The notes under the pieces: model-generated
Database searches by the model: none
Told to the model about the DNA's origin: nothing
What the model saw: the letters and a program-made list of their open reading frames with translations, nothing else
From: Fibrobacter sp.
GTDB lineage: Bacteria; Fibrobacterota; Fibrobacteria; Fibrobacterales; Fibrobacteraceae
Reading direction: 5' to 3'
Length of the DNA stretch: 8,499 bases
NCBI GenBank assembly: GCA_021443065.1
Contig: JABUUR010000472.1
Location: 1-8,499 of the forward strand
Program-made: the position numbers and the translations under genes
In this document: positions 178 to 8,257 of the stretch, one piece after another
How positions within the stretch are numbered: position 1 is the stretch's first letter
Layout: each line of letters starts with the position of its first letter

Positions 178-259
178 GATCCCGGGTCAAGCCCGGGATG
201 ACAATCACCAACTGGGAGGACTCTCAGTGGGGGGGGGGGGCATAGCCCCTTGCATCATT
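178..259. repeat. 83-bp direct repeat, copy 2, touching the sigma gene stop
   Basis: This is the second copy of the repeat at 35-117: palindrome at 181-197, a run of 12 G (229-240), hairpin GGGGC-ATA-GCCCC at 237-249, and the tail GCATCATT. The repeat covers the first two bases of the minus-strand stop codon (258-260), so the element abuts the 3' end of the sigma gene exactly. On the minus strand the GGGGCTATGCCCC hairpin comes a few bases after the stop and could protect or end the mRNA. Confidence 0.85.
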
Positions 260-1070
260 ATTTGTTTATTGCAGCGAGGAATGCGTCTTTCTTTTCCTGG
301 AGGAATTCCTTGCTGTTGTATTTGCGGATACGGCGTAAAGCCTGGTCGCGCAACTGACGGACGCGCTCATGGGAAATGTTCATGGATTCGCCCACTTCAC
401 GAAGGGTCTGGGGTGCTTCCTGGTTGATGCCGAAAATGCCGGTAATGACCTTGGCTTCGCGTTCGGGCAGCTGTTCCATAAGGTCGCGGGCCAGGGCTTC
501 GACGCTCTGTATTTCGGACTCGGCTTCGGGATTGGAGGCTCCGCCGTCGGGGAGGACTTCGGCGTATGTCGCCTTGGAGTCGGCTTTGAGGGGACTGTCG
601 AAGGAAACGCCCCGCTGGCCAATCTGGATGAGTTCGCGAATCTCTTCGTTGATTTCTTTACCACGGGACTGTTCGTGCAAAGCCTTGCGCACGCGGAGGT
701 GCTGGTTTGCGGGAAGGCGAATCAGGTTGCCCTGTTCGTTGATGGCGCGGGTAATGTAAGCCTTGATCCACCAGACACCGTAAGAAATGAACTTGAGGCC
801 GCGGGTGTGTTCGAAGGATTCGATGGCGCGGACCAGACCCATGGCGCCTTCGCTGACCAAGTCCGGCAGGGGAATGGGGCAACCGCGGTACTGGATGGCG
901 ACCTTCAAAACGAATCGCATGTTTGCAGAAATAAGTTTTTTACGGGCGATCTTGTCGCCTTCTTTGGCTTTCTGGAAAAGAATCTGTTCTTCTTCGCGAG
1001 AGAGGGGGGCGGTGCGACGAATGTCTTCTAAGTAACGCTTGAGGGTGGTGTCTGTAGAATCGATATGCAT
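258..1070 (-). CDS. RNA polymerase sigma-70 family factor (short RpoD/RpoS-like)
   Basis: A 270-residue sigma factor that would guide core RNA polymerase to promoters. It has no region 1.1. Region 1.2 lies at about 8-40, regions 2.1-2.2 at 41-83 (SANMRFVLKVA; DLVSEGAMGL), and 2.3-2.4 at 88-115 (GLKFISYGVWWIKAYITRAI). Region 4 lies at about 193-250, with LPEREAKVI and the helix-turn-helix SHERVRQLRDQALRRIRK. The paired tryptophans W100-W101, which help melt the -10 element, are kept, but the residue matching E. coli sigma70 Q437 is Ala104. Region 3 is about 17 residues shorter than in E. coli sigma70. The ATG at 1070 has an upstream AAGGAAGTAAGG ribosome site. It stands alone, divergent from the other genes. 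It may be the compact primary sigma of its phylum or a group 2 alternative sigma, so I give no symbol. Confidence 0.93.
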   Translation of the reverse strand: MHIDSTDTTLKRYLEDIRRTAPLSREEEQILFQKAKEGDKIARKKLISANMRFVLKVAIQYRGCPIPLPDLVSEGAMGLVRAIESFEHTRGLKFISYGVWWIKAYITRAINEQGNLIRLPANQHLRVRKALHEQSRGKEINEEIRELIQIGQRGVSFDSPLKADSKATYAEVLPDGGASNPEAESEIQSVEALARDLMEQLPEREAKVITGIFGINQEAPQTLREVGESMNISHERVRQLRDQALRRIRKYNSKEFLQEKKDAFLAAINK

Positions 1071-2185: not shown

Positions 2186-3331
2186 TTGAAAATTCTTGTA
2201 GTCAATTATAGAGATCGTTTGCACCCTGCCGCCGGCGGCGCCGAAAAGCACCTTCATCGGATTTTCTCATTGATAGTCCAAATGGGCCATCAGGTTGTCT
2301 TGCTGACCACGAGCTTTTCCGGTGCCAGGGAACGCGAAGTTGTAGACGGGATTCAGGTGGTTCGCAAGGGGTCTGATTTGCTGTTCCAACTGACGGTGGC
2401 CGTGAACATCCGCAAACTGGACAGGGAATTCAATTTTGACGTGGTGCTGGAAGACTTGAACAAACTGCCTCTGTTTACGCCCTTGTTGCAGAAAAAGCCC
2501 GTGGTGGTCCAGATGCATCATTTGTGGCGGTCTTCCATTTTTCACGAAGCCTTTTTCCCTGTGGCATTCGGGGTGTGGCTTTTTGAACGGATCATCCCGT
2601 GGTTCTATCGCAAGGAACCCTTCATTGTGGTAAGCCCCAGTACAAAACGGGAACTCTGCGAACTTGGCGTGGACGAAGACCGTGTGGCTGTGATTTATAA
2701 CGGCTCTGATGATTGTACCGATGAAAACGGGGCGGACGCCCTGGAAGGATCGGATATTGACGCCCCCTATTTCCTGTGGCTTTCTCGGGTGCACCGTTAC
2801 AAGGGAATCTGGACTGCGCTGGAAGCCTTTGAAGAATTTGCAAGGAAGCATCAGGACGTAAAACTGGTGGTGGCGGGCGATGGCCCTTTGCTGAAGGATA
2901 TTCCTGCCTGGCTTGAAACACACGGCCTTAAGGAACGAGTGGTCTTGACGGGTTATGTGTCTACGGCAAGGAAACGCGCTTTGCTTAAGAATGCCGTTGC
3001 CCTTTTGCAGACAAGTTTCAAGGAAGGCTGGGGACTGACTGTGGTAGAAGCCGCTAAACTGGGGACGACTACGGTGGCTTGCGACGTGCCTGGCCTTAGG
3101 GATAGCGTACGCAATGGCGAAACGGGTTTGCTGTTTCCTGCGGGGGACAAGGTGGCCTGCGCCTTTGAAATGGACCGTGTCTACAGCGACGACGACCTGC
3201 GCACACGCCTCGAAGAAGAGGCCAGGTCTTACTCCGACGAGTTCCGCTGGGACACCGCCGCGGAACTGACTGCGAACCTTTTGCAAGATGCCGTGATTGA
3301 ACATCAGGTGGATCAGGTTGCCAATGAATAG
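2186..3331 (+). CDS. GT4-family glycosyltransferase (GT-B fold)
   Basis: A 381-residue enzyme predicted to move a sugar from a nucleotide-sugar donor to a surface glycan or lipid acceptor. The N-terminal domain begins MKILVVNYRD and has the glycine loop PAAGGAEKHLHRI (14-26). The linker region has VVSPSTKRELCELGV (148-162) and AVIYNGSD (168-175). The C-terminal Glycos_transf_1 domain shows FLWLSRVHRYKGI (196-208), LVVAGDGPLL (227-236) and LTGYVS (254-259). The retaining-GT E-x7-E motif is E280 and E288 in KEGWGLTVVEAAKLG, and GETGLLFPAGD (311-321) follows. The start is TTG at 2186, which gives the standard N-terminal strand. The ribosome site is weak, so translation probably depends on coupling to the methyltransferase ending 10 bases earlier. 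The 3' end overlaps the next gene by 8 bases. Donor and acceptor cannot be told from sequence. Confidence 0.93.
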   Translation: MKILVVNYRDRLHPAAGGAEKHLHRIFSLIVQMGHQVVLLTTSFSGAREREVVDGIQVVRKGSDLLFQLTVAVNIRKLDREFNFDVVLEDLNKLPLFTPLLQKKPVVVQMHHLWRSSIFHEAFFPVAFGVWLFERIIPWFYRKEPFIVVSPSTKRELCELGVDEDRVAVIYNGSDDCTDENGADALEGSDIDAPYFLWLSRVHRYKGIWTALEAFEEFARKHQDVKLVVAGDGPLLKDIPAWLETHGLKERVVLTGYVSTARKRALLKNAVALLQTSFKEGWGLTVVEAAKLGTTTVACDVPGLRDSVRNGETGLLFPAGDKVACAFEMDRVYSDDDLRTRLEEEARSYSDEFRWDTAAELTANLLQDAVIEHQVDQVANE

Positions 3332-4358
3332 CCGGTTGAAATCATTCCTGGTGTTTTGCCTGAAGTTGGCGGTGACCTTGATTCCGGCTTATTTCGTGTA
3401 CCGCAACATCGTGATGGCGCCGGACTGGAACATCGAAGACCTGTACGAACTGTTTACAGGCAAAAGCGTGCTGCCTTTGGTGCTTGCCTTGCTTTGCCTT
3501 ACGGTTTCAAACTTTACCGCCTGCATGCAGTGGAAGTTGCTTCTGGAAAGGCAGGATGTGCACTTGTCTTACGGTCGCCTGCTGAAACTTTACCACGTGG
3601 GTTTGTTCTTTAACAATTTTATGCCGGGTAACGTGGGGGGCGATGCCAAGAAGATTTATGACATCCGTGTGCAGGGCGGGCAGGATTCTGTGGGTGCTGG
3701 TTTTACGGCGACTTTCTTCGACAGGTTGTTCGGATTGTTCTTTATTACTTTGTTTGCACTAGGCATGGGCCTGTTGTTCTTTATGCACGATTCAGAGCAG
3801 CGTGCCTTGATGTGGCCTTCCGTTTGGATTTTTGTAGGCTTTTGCACGTTGTTCGCTTCTTTGTTCAGCCGTCGCCTGGGCAATTTGGTTTGCAGGCTGA
3901 TGGCAAAGCTTTTGCCCGAAAAGATCAACGTGAGACTGATCAATATGTTCAAGCGTTTCCAGCAGTTCCGCTCCCTGAAACTCTGGATTTGCATCAGCTG
4001 CCTTTCGGCCGTGACCCAGTCCCTTCGCATTTTTGTCCACTTTTTCTGTGGCATGGCCCTGGGCGTTGATCTTTCTATATCCTGGTATTTCTACTACATT
4101 CCCCTGGTGGCAATCATCAGTGCCCTGCCTATTTCCATTGGCGGATTTGGCCCCAGGGAATTGCTTGCGCAGTCCTTGTTTGCAAAGGCCGGCGTTGCAA
4201 GCCTGGAATCTGTAGTTATCCAACTTTTGGCCTACTTTGTAAGCCTTGTGATTAGTCTGTTCGGAGCCTTTGTGTTTTTACTTGACGGCGGTTCGCCGAG
4301 GGTAAAGGCGGTCGCTCAAGGCCTTGGAACAGACGACGCTAATGGTAAGGACGCGTAA
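3324..4358 (+). CDS. Flippase-like/lysylphosphatidylglycerol synthase TM family membrane protein
   Basis: A 344-residue polytopic inner-membrane protein. Hydrophobic segments lie near residues 8-29, 48-67, 88-100, 134-154, 166-182, 219-245, 255-275 and 296-320. Two family signatures are clear: FFNNFMPGNVGGDAKKIY (95-112) and ALPISIGGFGPRELLA (267-282), typical of PF03706 (UPF0104, the membrane part of MprF). The lysyl-transfer domain of MprF is absent, so aminoacylation is not expected. Members of this size are often found beside glycosyltransferases and are thought to handle lipids or lipid-linked sugars. The ATG at 3324 has AGG six bases upstream and overlaps the glycosyltransferase stop by 8 bases, a sign of translational coupling. 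An in-frame TTG at 3297 would add 9 residues but has no such support. The exact substrate is unknown. Confidence 0.9.
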   Translation: MNSRLKSFLVFCLKLAVTLIPAYFVYRNIVMAPDWNIEDLYELFTGKSVLPLVLALLCLTVSNFTACMQWKLLLERQDVHLSYGRLLKLYHVGLFFNNFMPGNVGGDAKKIYDIRVQGGQDSVGAGFTATFFDRLFGLFFITLFALGMGLLFFMHDSEQRALMWPSVWIFVGFCTLFASLFSRRLGNLVCRLMAKLLPEKINVRLINMFKRFQQFRSLKLWICISCLSAVTQSLRIFVHFFCGMALGVDLSISWYFYYIPLVAIISALPISIGGFGPRELLAQSLFAKAGVASLESVVIQLLAYFVSLVISLFGAFVFLLDGGSPRVKAVAQGLGTDDANGKDA

Positions 4359-4440
4359 AGCCTTCCTTTTTTAGATTCTGGTGGCGGGCCTGTTGTGAAC
4401 CGAGCTTGCAGGATATCGCCCCATTCCAAAACGAGGAACT
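4359..4440 (+). promoter_or_regulatory. Short intergenic region with T-tract and TAGATT box
   Basis: Eighty-two bases separate the membrane-protein gene from the helicase gene. A run of six T (4367-4372) flows into TAGATT (4372-4377), a -10-like box, but no -35 match is clear. The T run follows only a 4-bp AAGG/CCTT stem, too weak to call a terminator. AGGA at 4434-4437 is the ribosome site for the ATG at 4441. The helicase may thus have its own promoter or continue the upstream operon. Confidence 0.3.
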
Positions 4441-6672
4441 ATGGATGCGCAAAGCATCTTGGCTGGACTGAATGCAGACCAACGTGCCGCTGTTTTGCAT
4501 GACCACGAAACAGGTTGTCAACTTTTGATCTTGGCAGGGGCGGGCTCCGGCAAGACTTCTGTGCTTACCAAGCGGATCCAGTACAGGATCCTTTGCGGTG
4601 TAAAGCCCGAAAAAATCCTGGCATTGACTTTTACTGCCAAGGCTGCTGCGGAAATGCGGGAACGTGTGCAGAGCCTTTTCCCTAATGCGGGGGTGCGGCT
4701 GTGTACCTTTCATTCTTTGGCCTTGTACATGTTGAAGTGCAAGGTCCCCTGCGGAGGGGGTGCAGACGGCTTGCGAGGGGAACGGTATGCATACGAGATG
4801 CTGGGCTTTAAGAAAATGCCAGTCCCCGCGGAGGCCGCCAACCGGGATTTTCTTCAGAAACTTTCGAAATTGAACTTGAAGAAAAAGAAACTCTCCAGGG
4901 AAAATCTTTTTGCCGACGGCTACAGCGCGGGCATGCTTGCAAAACTTGCCCCTTTGCAACAGGAGGTACTGGATTCGGGGCAGGTCGTGTTTGAAGACCT
5001 GATTTACATGGCCATTCGTCTGCTTGAAAGTTTTGAGGAGGCCCGCCGGTTTTTTCAGGAGATGTGGCACGAGATTTTGGTGGATGAATATCAGGATATT
5101 AATCCCACCCAGTACCGCCTGGTGAAAAATATTCTTGGCGACCGCAAACAACTTTTTGTGGTGGGGGATGACGACCAGGCGATTTACGGGTTTCGTGGGG
5201 CGGACATCGGAAATATCAACCGTTTCTGTCAGGATTTTAGGCAGAGCACGCTGATCCGCCTGGAATGGAATTATCGCTCGGTGCCCAATATTCTCCACTT
5301 GGCCAATGGAATCTTTACCGACAAGCCTGTCCATTTGAGAAAGGTGCTCAGGGCCGGAAATCCCAAGGGCTCGGGTGGAAACCCAATCTACCGGGAAAAT
5401 CGCAGGCCCCAGGTGTGGGTGTCGGACAACCCGGTGGAGGAAATGCAGAAGGTGGTGTGCTCCATGAAGGAGTTGCGCCTTTCCTACGACCTGGAATGGA
5501 AGAACTTTGCCATTCTGGTGCGGTATAACCGCCAGCGCCTTTATTACGAGACCGCTCTTCGGGATTACGGCATTCCGGTGTTCGGCGATAGCGTGGGGAT
5601 TGCCGAAAGCGATTCGGGGGAGTCGGTGGAGGCTGTCGTGGAAAACGGAGTGCACGTGGAAACGGTCCATGCCTCCAAGGGGCTGCAGTACGCTGTGGTC
5701 TACTATGCAGGGATGGCGGAGAACTTGACGCCGGGAGAATGTACCGGCACCCGAATCCAGCGCAAACGCCAAATGGAGGAGGAACGGAGACTGTATTATG
5801 TGGGAGTCACCCGTGCGGAATCATTTTTGGTTTTGCTATATTGCAAACAGAGATACTGGAAGGGCAGGCTTCGCAAGTTGCGAAGGTCTCGGTTCCTTCC
5901 AAAAGAAAAACCTTATTCGGAATTTTATATGCCGCTGATTATTTTTAGAATCTACGTGGTCGTCGTGGTTCTGGGATACATGTGTTTCCAGATGCTGCGG
6001 GTGCCCTTTAGTCTGCTGCGCAATGGCCGTGAAAAATTCAACGCCTGGGTGGATGACCGAATCCAGTTCTTTGCGGGCTTTTGCATGAAGATGCTGCGGG
6101 TGGACTTGTCTATCGAGAATCAGGCGGTCCTGGGCAAGGTGGACTGGAGTCGCCCGGTGTTTGTGGTGGGCAATCACAGCTCCTTTGCGGATATCCCTAT
6201 CGTTTTTCTTTCGATCCAGAAGACCATCGGCTTTGTGGCGAAGAAATCCCTGGGGAACATTCCTTTTTTGAATTTCTGGATGCACCGCATCGGCTGCATT
6301 CTGGTGGACCGTAAAAAGGGTGGTGCCGCTGCGGGTATTCGTGCGGCCATTGCTGAACGCGGTTCTGCCCCCCGCGTGTTTATTTTCCCGGAGGGAACTC
6401 GCAGCAAGGACGGAAAAATCGGCCCCTTCAAGAGTGGTGCCTTCCGTTTTGCCCACGAATCCAACGGAATCATATTGCCCCTGGTGATTACGGGTTCTGC
6501 CGATGTGTGGGAGGCTCGCAAGAATTCTTCCCCCTGCAAGGTGAACGTGAAGATCCTTGACCCGGTGGACGTTGCCGCCATGCTTAAGGAAAACCCTCAG
6601 TTGGACCCCAAGCGGGACCTTGCCCACATAGTCCGCGAAAGGATGGTGGAAGCCAAGGAAGGCGTAAGGTAG
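4441..6672 (+). CDS. UvrD/Rep-type helicase fused in frame to PlsC-type acyltransferase
   Basis: A 743-residue frame joining two enzymes. Residues 1-489 are a superfamily 1A DNA helicase: Q motif LNADQRAAV (10-18), Walker A AGAGSGKT (32-39), Ia LTFTAKAAAEMRERV (62-76), TFHSLA (89-94), motif II VDEYQD (214-219), III GDDDQAIYGFRGA (242-254), IV WNYRS (276-280), V TVHASKGLQ (408-416), and VI EEERRLYYVGVTRA (446-459). Only about 44 residues separate RYNRQ (361-365) from motif V, so the 2B subdomain is essentially missing. SRFLPKE (483-489) resembles the usual UvrD-family end. Residues 497-743 are a 1-acyl-glycerol-3-phosphate acyltransferase. It has an N-terminal hydrophobic anchor (498-517), catalytic H-x4-D as NHSSFAD (H579, D584), GCILVDRKKG (618-627), and FPEGTRSKDG (649-658), which binds the acyl acceptor phosphate. 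murI follows at once. An independent start for the acyltransferase at 5929 is plausible, so this may behave as two genes. Confidence 0.88.
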   Translation: MDAQSILAGLNADQRAAVLHDHETGCQLLILAGAGSGKTSVLTKRIQYRILCGVKPEKILALTFTAKAAAEMRERVQSLFPNAGVRLCTFHSLALYMLKCKVPCGGGADGLRGERYAYEMLGFKKMPVPAEAANRDFLQKLSKLNLKKKKLSRENLFADGYSAGMLAKLAPLQQEVLDSGQVVFEDLIYMAIRLLESFEEARRFFQEMWHEILVDEYQDINPTQYRLVKNILGDRKQLFVVGDDDQAIYGFRGADIGNINRFCQDFRQSTLIRLEWNYRSVPNILHLANGIFTDKPVHLRKVLRAGNPKGSGGNPIYRENRRPQVWVSDNPVEEMQKVVCSMKELRLSYDLEWKNFAILVRYNRQRLYYETALRDYGIPVFGDSVGIAESDSGESVEAVVENGVHVETVHASKGLQYAVVYYAGMAENLTPGECTGTRIQRKRQMEEERRLYYVGVTRAESFLVLLYCKQRYWKGRLRKLRRSRFLPKEKPYSEFYMPLIIFRIYVVVVVLGYMCFQMLRVPFSLLRNGREKFNAWVDDRIQFFAGFCMKMLRVDLSIENQAVLGKVDWSRPVFVVGNHSSFADIPIVFLSIQKTIGFVAKKSLGNIPFLNFWMHRIGCILVDRKKGGAAAGIRAAIAERGSAPRVFIFPEGTRSKDGKIGPFKSGAFRFAHESNGIILPLVITGSADVWEARKNSSPCKVNVKILDPVDVAAMLKENPQLDPKRDLAHIVRERMVEAKEGVR
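5837..5842 (+). promoter_or_regulatory. Possible internal -10 box ahead of the acyltransferase part
   Basis: Inside the helicase 3' end, TTTTTGGTTTTGC leads into TATATT (5837-5842), the same T-rich plus TATATT pattern seen before the methyltransferase. It would start a transcript about 80 bases before the internal ATG at 5929. No -35 match sits at the usual distance, and the bases also encode the conserved hydrophobic strand FLVLLYC, so chance is a serious alternative. Confidence 0.2.
5919..5931 (+). promoter_or_regulatory. plsC: Internal ribosome site and ATG for a stand-alone PlsC
   Basis: GGA at 5919-5921 lies 7 bases before an in-frame ATG (5929-5931). The peptide from that ATG begins MPLIIFRIYVVVVVLGYM, exactly how a separate PlsC with an N-terminal membrane anchor would begin. 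It comes eight codons after the SRFLPKE box where UvrD-type helicases usually end. A 247-residue acyltransferase could therefore be made alone from this site, whether or not the fused protein is also made. Confidence 0.45.
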
Positions 6673-7482
6673 ATGATAGGCGTCTTCGACTCCGGATTCG
6701 GCGGCATGACTATTTTGAGGGACTTGCAAAAGGCCCTCCCCGAGTACGACTACCTGTACCTGGGCGACAACGCTCGCGCCCCTTACGGATCTCGAAGTTA
6801 CGAGACCATCTATCGCTATACTTTGCAGTGTGTTCGTGAGCTGTTCTCCAGGGGCTGCCCCCTGGTGATCCTGGCCTGCAATACCGCCTCGGCCAGGGCG
6901 CTTCGCAGCATTCAACAGCAGGTTCTTCCTTTCGAGTTCCCGGACCGTCGGGTGCTGGGCATTATACGCCCTACGGCAGAGGAAGTCGGGTCTTTTAGCA
7001 AGTCCGGACATATCGGGATTTTTGCTACGGCGGGGACGGTGTCTTCTGGAAGTTATCTGATTGAAATCAACCATTTTTACCCGGAACTGAAGGTGACCCA
7101 GCATGCCTGCCCCATGTGGGTGCCCCTGGTGGAATATGGCGAAAGCGAATCCCAGGGTGCAGATTACTTTGTTCAAAAAGAAGTGTCTGCTTTGCTTCAG
7201 GAGGATCCCGAAATCGATACGATCCTCTTGGCTTGCACCCACTACCCTCTTTTGGAAAAGTCCATACGCAGGTCCGTGCCCGAAAAAATCCGTCTAGTTT
7301 TCCAAGGGAACATTGTGGCCTCTAAAACCGTGGACTACCTGAACCGCCATCCTGAGATTGAAAATCGACTTACAAAGAATGGAAAATGCAATTTTTTGAC
7401 CACAGATACGGCGAAATTCTTCGAAAAAGGCGCTTTTCTCTTTGGAATGAAAGATATTTCTGCAGAGTCGTTGACTTTTTAG
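6673..7482 (+). CDS. murI: Glutamate racemase MurI
   Basis: A cofactor-independent cytosolic racemase of 269 residues, normal for the family, that makes D-glutamate for peptidoglycan precursors. The N-terminus GVFDSGFGGMTILRDL (3-18) carries the D6-S7 substrate contacts, and LGDNARAPYGSRS follows at 30-42. The two catalytic cysteines are C69 in ACNTASARAL and C188 in LLACTHYPLL, the latter followed by T189 and H190. CPMWVPLVEYGE (146-157) supplies the conserved glutamate near the active site. The ATG at 6673 follows the upstream TAG with no gap, and AAGGAAGG about 10 bases upstream lies within the preceding gene, so the two are almost surely co-transcribed and coupled. MurI with PlsC gives this end of the operon an envelope-building theme. 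No activator insertion or fusion is seen. Confidence 0.97.
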   Translation: MIGVFDSGFGGMTILRDLQKALPEYDYLYLGDNARAPYGSRSYETIYRYTLQCVRELFSRGCPLVILACNTASARALRSIQQQVLPFEFPDRRVLGIIRPTAEEVGSFSKSGHIGIFATAGTVSSGSYLIEINHFYPELKVTQHACPMWVPLVEYGESESQGADYFVQKEVSALLQEDPEIDTILLACTHYPLLEKSIRRSVPEKIRLVFQGNIVASKTVDYLNRHPEIENRLTKNGKCNFLTTDTAKFFEKGAFLFGMKDISAESLTF

Positions 7483-7618: not shown

Positions 7619-8257
7619 ATGCCAAAGACTCAGATTAATCTTGATGGTTGGCAGGACTACCGCGGCAACACCGCAGGTACCTTGCTCTATGTAGAAACTA
7701 GCCATCAGTCCGAAATGCCTGTACGCGATCAGTTGAACGAAAACGGCAAGGGCTTTCTTTACGAACCCAACTACGAAACCAGCACCTATGGTCTCATGAG
7801 TTGCTACAACGTGAAGACCGTGAATTCCATTCTCAAGGCGAAGAGCCGCTACATTTTGTTCGGCACCCGCTACGAAGGCTTGAGCGACTCCGAGTTGCGC
7901 AACAAGTACCTGATCATGGGCTACATGCGTATCGACAAGATCAAGGATGTACGCACCCGCCATATCCAGCGCTTTATGGCTAATCCCGAACTTCAGGAAC
8001 CGGAATGCATGCAGATGGAACACAACTGGGCTGTCTATGGACCCATGCGCTTTGTTTCCATGAACGATTCTTTTGTCGTTACCGACGAGATTCTCAAGGA
8101 ATGGGGATATCGCGGTCACGCGTCGCGTCAGCTTAAGGCTGTATTCCAGAAGGAGCATCTGGAGCAGATTTTGTCCTACCTGGATTCCAAGGAAGACATG
8201 ATCGACGAGTATATCGCCACGGTGGACGAATACAAGGAAGCCATGGAAGATCTGTAA
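7619..8257 (+). CDS. Unrecognised soluble protein, 212 aa
   Basis: I do not recognise this protein. The start is firm: GGAAG lies six bases before the ATG, and the gene is framed by a promoter-like region and strong terminators. There is no signal peptide or membrane segment, so it is probably cytosolic. A central core, SRYILFGTRYEGL (76-88) and KYLIMGYMRIDKIKDV (96-111), alternates hydrophobic strands in a way that recalls small PUA/ASCH-like beta-barrel folds, as does NWAVYGPMRFVSMNDSFVV (136-154). This resemblance is impression only. Next come EWGYRGHASRQLKAVF (161-176) and a charged, probably helical tail (177-212) that is acidic toward the end. Only two cysteines (62, 130) are present and no metal site is evident. 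Codon use looks like that of the neighbours, so it is probably a native gene. It seems to form its own transcription unit. Confidence 0.85.
   Translation: MPKTQINLDGWQDYRGNTAGTLLYVETSHQSEMPVRDQLNENGKGFLYEPNYETSTYGLMSCYNVKTVNSILKAKSRYILFGTRYEGLSDSELRNKYLIMGYMRIDKIKDVRTRHIQRFMANPELQEPECMQMEHNWAVYGPMRFVSMNDSFVVTDEILKEWGYRGHASRQLKAVFQKEHLEQILSYLDSKEDMIDEYIATVDEYKEAMEDL

What the first reader, a model, noticed from the sequence alone, without database searches (positions are those of the whole stretch)
4441..6672. DNA helicase and phospholipid acyltransferase in a single reading frame
All SF1A helicase motifs (residues 10-459) and all PlsC motifs (H579-x4-D584, FPEGTRSKDG at 649-658) lie in one uninterrupted 743-residue frame. 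The hydrophobic anchor at 498-517 is between them. If translated as one chain, it would tether a DNA helicase to the inner membrane and to phosphatidic acid synthesis. I know of no described enzyme joining these activities; that novelty statement rests on memory only.
Basis: partly seen in the sequence, partly recalled or inferred. Interest (0 to 1): 0.75.

Follow-up and report, generated by a model that had tools for sequence, protein, structure and literature searches.

The report
Helicase-acyltransferase gene with second start
In a family of bacteria that includes Fibrobacter, one unbroken gene encodes a DNA-unwinding motor followed by a membrane-lipid-making enzyme and keeps a start codon between the two, so it likely makes both a predicted membrane-tied motor and a free lipid enzyme, a pairing that would link DNA work to membrane building.

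Summary
Window 4441-6672 is one 743-residue frame: a UvrD-type SF1A helicase (1-489) followed by a PlsC-type acyltransferase (494-743). It is no assembly error: 108 of 110 fetched loci, one per genome of this family, hold both halves in one frame; the other 2 are cut by contig ends, and one further genome has no match. In one genus of the same class (6 of 6 genomes) the halves are separate genes, stop and start overlapping.

All six changes from ATG, independent on the tree, are to start codons. In Fibrobacter the gene's highest AT3 peak lies on this codon; in seven other genera (12 genomes) a Shine-Dalgarno-like motif precedes it beyond synonymous expectation. So the gene likely yields a fusion plus free PlsC. 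Against: no protein data, no SD signal in Fibrobacter, and Pro498 is more conserved than Met497.

The helicase lacks the 2B subdomain; the 'anchor' is PlsC's own N-terminal helix. No paper describing this fusion turned up in the searches made. Tethering and its purpose are inferred.

The parts
4433..4437 (+). GAGGA, Shine-Dalgarno-like, before the long-form start
   Evidence: read in the sequence
4441..6672 (+). whole fused ORF, 743 codons and TAG; long form, helicase-PlsC
   Evidence: one frame in 108 of 110 loci
4441..5907 (+). 2B-less UvrD/PcrA-like SF1A helicase, residues 1-489
5899..5928 (+). variable linker, residues 487-496; 10-29 codons across 108 rows, always in frame and without stop
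5919..5921 (+). GGA, weak Shine-Dalgarno-like element before the inner start
   Evidence: in this genus not stronger than synonymous versions
5929..5931 (+). inner start codon ATG (Met497), predicted start of free PlsC
   Evidence: start codon in 108 of 108 rows, 3 of them one codon later; AT3 peak at residues 490-504 in the genus
5929..6672 (+). PlsC-type acyltransferase, 247 residues if started at the inner ATG
5935..6024 (+). long N-terminal helix of PlsC, residues 499-528, predicted membrane-binding
   Evidence: model helix H499-528; membrane role inferred from PlsC
6673..7482 (+). glutamate racemase murI, ATG directly after the fusion's TAG; probable same operon
   Evidence: TIGR00067 184.5 bits over its cut-off of 146.65; a murI match on the same strand in the fetched stretch of 85 of 108 loci

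Best explanation
This is one gene, unbroken in 108 of 108 readable loci of this Fibrobacter-containing family, that encodes a 2B-less UvrD-type helicase followed in frame by a PlsC-type acyltransferase with a start codon kept at the boundary, and it likely yields two proteins: a helicase-PlsC fusion predicted to sit at the inner membrane and, from the inner start, a free PlsC. Shown: the single frame, the conserved catalytic residues of both halves, the conserved inner start codon, and the overlapping two-gene arrangement in a related genus. Inferred: a helicase-plsC pair with overlapping stop and start lost its stop in the ancestor of the family; ribosomes from the upstream start now run on into PlsC, while others enter at the inner start, where the mRNA is AT-rich and weakly folded (Fibrobacter) or carries a Shine-Dalgarno-like motif (seven other genera). 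As a result the helicase would be made only as a PlsC-tethered protein (unless cleaved), whereas PlsC would exist free as well. By analogy with Rep lacking 2B, the motor would unwind DNA without the usual 2B brake but be poor at stripping proteins from it; PlsC would acylate lysophosphatidate at the inner membrane.
For: One frame in 108 of 110 loci, the other 2 contig-cut; linker length varies (10, 11, 12, 13, 16, 21, 25, 29 codons) but always in frame. Start codon at the junction in 108 of 108: 102 ATG, 4 GTG, 2 TTG; 105 in the aligned column, 3 one codon later. Codons replacing ATG: 6 of 6 are GTG/TTG here versus 15 of 144 at the five other Met-majority columns that vary (Fisher 3.8e-6); as tree changes 6 of 6 versus 13 of 51 (P 7e-4). 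Fibrobacter (80 rows): junction mRNA less folded than synonymous versions (-4.76 versus -7.14 kcal/mol, P 7e-11; 240 other ATGs show none); the top AT3-excess 15-codon window of the gene is residues 490-504, also in 18 rows thinned below 80% identity; codons 2-9 after the inner start have an excess of 0.293, against 0.11, 0.11, 0.12 and 0.39 at the starts of four neighbouring genes. Twelve genomes of seven other genera (five of these genera with one genome each): junction SD stronger than about 94-99% of synonymous versions. Related genus: 6 of 6 with stop/start overlap; fused PlsC rows form one group near those PlsCs. Catalytic residues conserved. Rep without 2B: PMC6158625 (abstract); 2B deletion activates a monomer: PMC13238157 (passages).
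Against: No protein evidence for either product. Taken strictly in the aligned column, 5 of 8 replacing codons are GTG/TTG, the other three being TCA, AAT and CGT with a start codon next to them: versus other columns P 0.001 by rows but only 0.049 by tree changes. Pro498 is more conserved (105 of 108) than Met497 (100 of 108), as a structural Met-Pro would be. In the window's own genus the SD is no better than synonymous versions (mean percentile 0.42). The other genera show no AT3 peak (codons 2-9, 0.062), and their lower folding is not significant (P 0.06). The long form's own start shows little AT3 excess in the genus (0.03 over residues 1-15; 0.074 over codons 2-9). AT3 also rises before the junction (second region near 460-475, up to 0.192) and at other gene ends (murI 0.22), so the peak is not specific to starts. 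Rows are related, so row-based P values overstate.
Confidence: 0.63

Rival explanations
1. Fusion only: the gene makes a single bifunctional protein, and Met497-Pro498 is kept because it begins the PlsC membrane helix, not as a start.
For: Pro498 is kept in 105 of 108 rows, more than Met497 with 100; helix 499-528 starts there in the model; no SD enrichment in Fibrobacter; none of the 108 readable loci has a stop between the halves.
Against: Where ATG is lost from the column a start codon (GTG, TTG or a neighbouring ATG) stands at or next to the position; AT3 and folding signals peak on this codon in Fibrobacter; SD-like motifs in seven other genera.
Confidence: 0.23
2. Neutral ratchet: both products are made, but the tether has no function; a stop-loss joined two co-expressed genes and the fusion is merely tolerated. 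(A variant of the best explanation, so the odds overlap.)
For: The forerunner pair overlaps; in 20 further loci of other families of the phylum no PlsC was found beside the helicase, so the pairing is not needed in general; other PlsC-type genes exist in the genus.
Against: No readable lineage has regained a stop between the halves: 0 of 108 loci, which hold 18 + 19 representatives under 80% identity. A random 10-codon linker would be stop-free about 62% of the time per lineage (my arithmetic, rough).
Confidence: 0.4
3. The chain is cut after translation, so helicase and PlsC act apart.
For: The region 481-500 is low in conservation in the genus (0.60).
Against: No conserved site between Leu486 and Met497 was seen by eye in the alignments.
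Confidence: 0.07
4. Assembly error joining two genes.
For: The window's genome is a fragmented draft (535 contigs).
Against: The same joined frame in 107 other loci, including genomes rated 100% complete such as G003, G005 and G125.
Confidence: 0.01

Closest known systems
PcrA / Rep / UvrD SF1A helicases
   Different: PcrA 378-536, about 159 residues that hold the 2B subdomain (placing recalled), has almost no counterpart; the C-terminus is PlsC; far below the PcrA equivalog cut-off (291 versus 911 bits).
Rep lacking 2B (engineered)
   Same: 2B absent; the engineered form is hyperactivated for unwinding in vitro (PMC6158625 abstract).
   Different: Natural; relatives of similar length occur as separate genes elsewhere in the phylum; here joined to a membrane enzyme.
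PlsC, 1-acyl-sn-glycerol-3-phosphate acyltransferase (T. maritima 5kym)
   Different: Carries a helicase upstream in frame; 90.6 bits is under the TIGR00530 cut-off of 102.95.
Genes with in-frame inner starts (e.g. Cas11b made from inside a larger Cas gene)
   Same: One frame, a second start yielding the C-terminal part (PMC11899642, search listing and abstract start only).
   Different: Here the inner start is the old start of an unrelated enzyme gene, kept after a gene fusion.

Membership tests
UvrD-like SF1A helicase | catalytic motif residues (Q14, GxGK38T, DEYQD, GDDDQ, NYR, HxSKG, VTRA) | tested here: met
   same in every covering row of 108 for the residues checked, A459 in 107 of 108; motif names recalled
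UvrD-like SF1A helicase | fold of 1A, 1B, 2A | tested here: met
UvrD-like SF1A helicase | 2B regulatory subdomain as in PcrA/Rep/UvrD | tested here: not met
   query 379-383 bridges PcrA 377-537; hence not filed as PcrA, Rep or UvrD proper
UvrD-like SF1A helicase | ATP-driven 3'-5' translocation or unwinding | not testable with these tools
   biochemistry needed
PlsC / LPLAT acyltransferase | NHx4D and FPEGTR motifs | tested here: met
   N578, H579, D584 in 108 of 108; F649, P650, E651, G652, R654 in 107 of 107 covering rows, T653 in 104 of 107
PlsC / LPLAT acyltransferase | Pfam PF01553 over cut-off and PlsC fold | tested here: met
TIGR00530 1-acylglycerol-3-phosphate O-acyltransferase | score over NCBI's curated cut-off | tested here: not met
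   90.6 versus 102.95 bits; substrate therefore inferred
PlsC / LPLAT acyltransferase | acylation of lysophosphatidate | not testable with these tools
   enzyme assay or complementation needed
dual-product gene with in-frame inner start | conserved start codon inside the frame | tested here: met
   108 of 108, 3 of them one codon later
dual-product gene with in-frame inner start | ribosome-binding site before it | tested here: inconclusive
   beyond synonymous expectation in 7 genera (12 genomes), not in genera g1, g14, g16, g23 (96 genomes)
dual-product gene with in-frame inner start | both proteins detected | not testable with these tools
   no proteomic data held

The most novel reading that the evidence does not exclude
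The long form is a working membrane-tethered helicase: PlsC holds an unbraked DNA motor at the sites of phosphatidic acid synthesis, so that DNA or R-loop processing and membrane growth are physically linked, and the ratio of fusion to free PlsC, set at the inner start, tunes that link.
Probability: 0.22. Interest if true: 0.85.

Novelty: new variant of a known kind. Interest (0 to 1): 0.62.

Why it matters
Two unrelated enzymes, one for DNA and one for membrane lipid, have stayed joined through a bacterial family, while the nucleotide sequence still carries the start of the second gene. That would make it a case where a gene fusion became a two-product gene. It is also a natural UvrD-type motor without the 2B subdomain, whose removal has been studied in engineered Rep. 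If the fusion is membrane-bound and active, it would give a direct handle on how chromosome work and membrane synthesis are tied together.

Tried and rejected
Assembly error: rejected, 107 other loci have the join. Sole PlsC of the cell: rejected, 4-7 PF01553 matches in each of 10 genus genomes, a separate PlsC clade among them. TAG reported inside the match of G120: by the coordinates it is the gene's own stop, directly after the ORF in L097. Proteomic support from print: text searches of two F. succinogenes papers; the main text of PMC4619616 has none of the four terms; PMC6851124 lists FSU_0064, '1-acyl-sn-glycerol-3-phosphate acyltransferase', among cell-envelope proteins (passages only), but I could not tell whether that is this gene. 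Supplements could not be looked up. Search for a recalled plsC-nucleoid segregation link (parF): two papers hold the terms, neither on this by title and abstract start. A Wilcoxon test was run in the wrong direction; one search replaces it with a synonymous control. G124 (98% complete) has no match at 1e-30 and a best one of 6.6e-26, the level of ordinary UvrD-type proteins: loss or gap, not resolved. L099 and L105 were dropped from the 110 because the contig ends inside the gene; three of the 108 (L083, L086, L087) are also open at one end but span the junction.

Full report
WHAT IS THERE. The window's frame 4441-6672 is 743 codons long, ATG to TAG, with GAGGA just before the start and the murI ATG directly after the stop. 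Pfam finds UvrD-helicase and UvrD_C in the first part and Acyltransferase PF01553 in the second. The window lies in G000, a 70% complete draft of 535 contigs. The genus is Fibrobacter: protein hits are so named, and contigs of three same-genus handles have exactly the lengths of named Fibrobacter records (G024 and L060, G025 and L059, G034 and L064). The family name Fibrobacteraceae is recalled, not given by a call.

IT RECURS. A search of 126 genomes of the class covers 80 genomes of the genus and 31 of ten other genera of its family, 111 in all. I had loci for 110 of these; the 111th, G124, has no match at 1e-30. In 108 of the 110 one ORF holds both halves; the remaining two, L099 and L105, are cut by the end of the contig. 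Identity to the window falls to 45-47%. Of 7837 matching database proteins the best 120 were listed; these carry both Pfam domains, and the 9 with a legible source name are called either 'UvrD-helicase domain-containing protein' or '1-acyl-sn-glycerol-3-phosphate acyltransferase', so each annotation sees one half.

WHERE IT CAME FROM. In genus g5 of the same class, 6 of 6 genomes have the helicase and a PlsC as separate neighbouring genes in different frames; read by homology, the stop overlaps the start as GTGA in three, ATGA in two and ATGCTGA in one. In 20 further loci of other families no PlsC match lies in the fetched stretch beside the helicase (26 loci examined, six of them g5; downstream room at least 420 bases). 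Genera g3 and g4 of the class were not examined for this. In a tree of 43 PlsC-type rows (18 of the 108 fused ones were given) the fused rows form one group (support 90/83), with a separate PlsC of G051 as sister (97/96) and then a group with the six g5 rows and four other separate rows of the class; a second, separate PlsC of Fibrobacter (5 rows) lies elsewhere. One origin in the ancestor of the family, from an overlapping pair, is the simplest reading (inference). I did not build a tree of the helicase half.

THE OLD START IS STILL THERE. At the junction every one of 108 rows has a bacterial start codon: 102 ATG, 4 GTG, 2 TTG; 105 in the aligned column and 3 (L081, L103, L104) one codon later, found by allowing one codon either way. 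The residues just before it vary and the linker runs from 10 to 29 codons, always in frame. Seven other columns have Met in at least half of the rows, column 1 left aside; two never vary, and at the five that do, 15 of 144 replacing codons are GTG or TTG, whereas at the junction 6 of 6 are (Fisher 3.8e-6). On a FastTree tree the six are independent changes; counted as changes the contrast is 6 of 6 against 13 of 51, P 7e-4. Taken strictly in the column it is 5 of 8 (P 0.001 by rows, 0.049 by changes), and without the three shifted rows 5 of 5 (3e-5 and 0.002). Pro498 is kept in 105 of 108 rows, Met497 in 100, so a structural share cannot be excluded.

NUCLEOTIDE SIGNALS. In Fibrobacter (80 rows) the mRNA around the codon is less folded than synonymous versions, -4.76 against -7.14 kcal/mol, while 240 other ATGs show no such effect. 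A scan of third-position AT excess along the gene, corrected for amino acid, has its top window at residues 490-504 (0.292; SD of all windows 0.067), and again in 18 rows thinned below 80% identity (0.231); outside 480-515 the highest window is 0.192, starting at 460. Codons 2-9 after the inner start show 0.293, the 8 before it 0.267, and codons 2-9 of the long form's own start 0.074. Starts of neighbouring genes show 0.11 (murI, 79 sequences), 0.11 (flippase-like, 80), 0.12 (glycosyltransferase, 17) and 0.39 (p212, 32), but gene 3' ends rise too (murI 0.22). Selection for high AT and low mRNA stability in the first ten codons is described, with the warning that mutation may contribute, in PMC12725619 (abstract). 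The other genera show no AT3 peak. In seven of them (12 genomes, five genera with one genome each) the duplex with the anti-SD is stronger than about 94-99% of synonymous versions; in genera g1, g14, g16 and g23 (96 genomes) it is not. The two non-ATG Fibrobacter rows carry GAGGA and AAAGGA upstream (two cases, no test).

HOW IT MOST LIKELY WORKS. With no stop between the halves, a ribosome from the first start must make the fusion; with a start kept at the boundary, free PlsC is probably made too. The helicase can then appear only tied to PlsC (unless cleaved), and PlsC is predicted to sit on the inner membrane. Whether the tie serves DNA work at the membrane, or is a tolerated accident that is not easily undone, is open; I put the functional tether at about one in five.

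LITERATURE. Searches for the fusion gave one paper, irrelevant by title, or none; one search listed seven papers, none of which by title or start of abstract concerns it. The library is open-access PMC only.

Noticed in passing
7619-8254 (+): A 212-residue ORF without any Pfam or NCBIfam match at E 0.001; 32 distinct related sequences in the genus loci, with the strongest AT3 excess at its start (0.39) of the four neighbouring genes.
   Followed up: no
258-1070 (-): A 270-residue sigma-70 family factor closest to RpoS models (195 bits, below the 378.7 cut-off).
   Followed up: no
3297-4358 (+): A flippase-like LPG_synthase_TM protein (PF03706) upstream of the fusion; a match on the same strand in the fetched stretch of 89 of 108 loci.
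   Followed up: partly
L042, L043, L044 near window residues 104-116: Several genus members match in two pieces (about 1-104 and about 115-739; G020, G006, G019, G095, G097, G098, G113), which suggests an insertion in the helicase half.
   Followed up: no
L173-L187 and other phylum loci: A short helicase like the fusion's first half, in open frames of mostly about 500-560 codons, occurs in several families of the phylum without PlsC beside it, next to ordinary UvrD-type proteins of about 700-1000 codons.
   Followed up: partly
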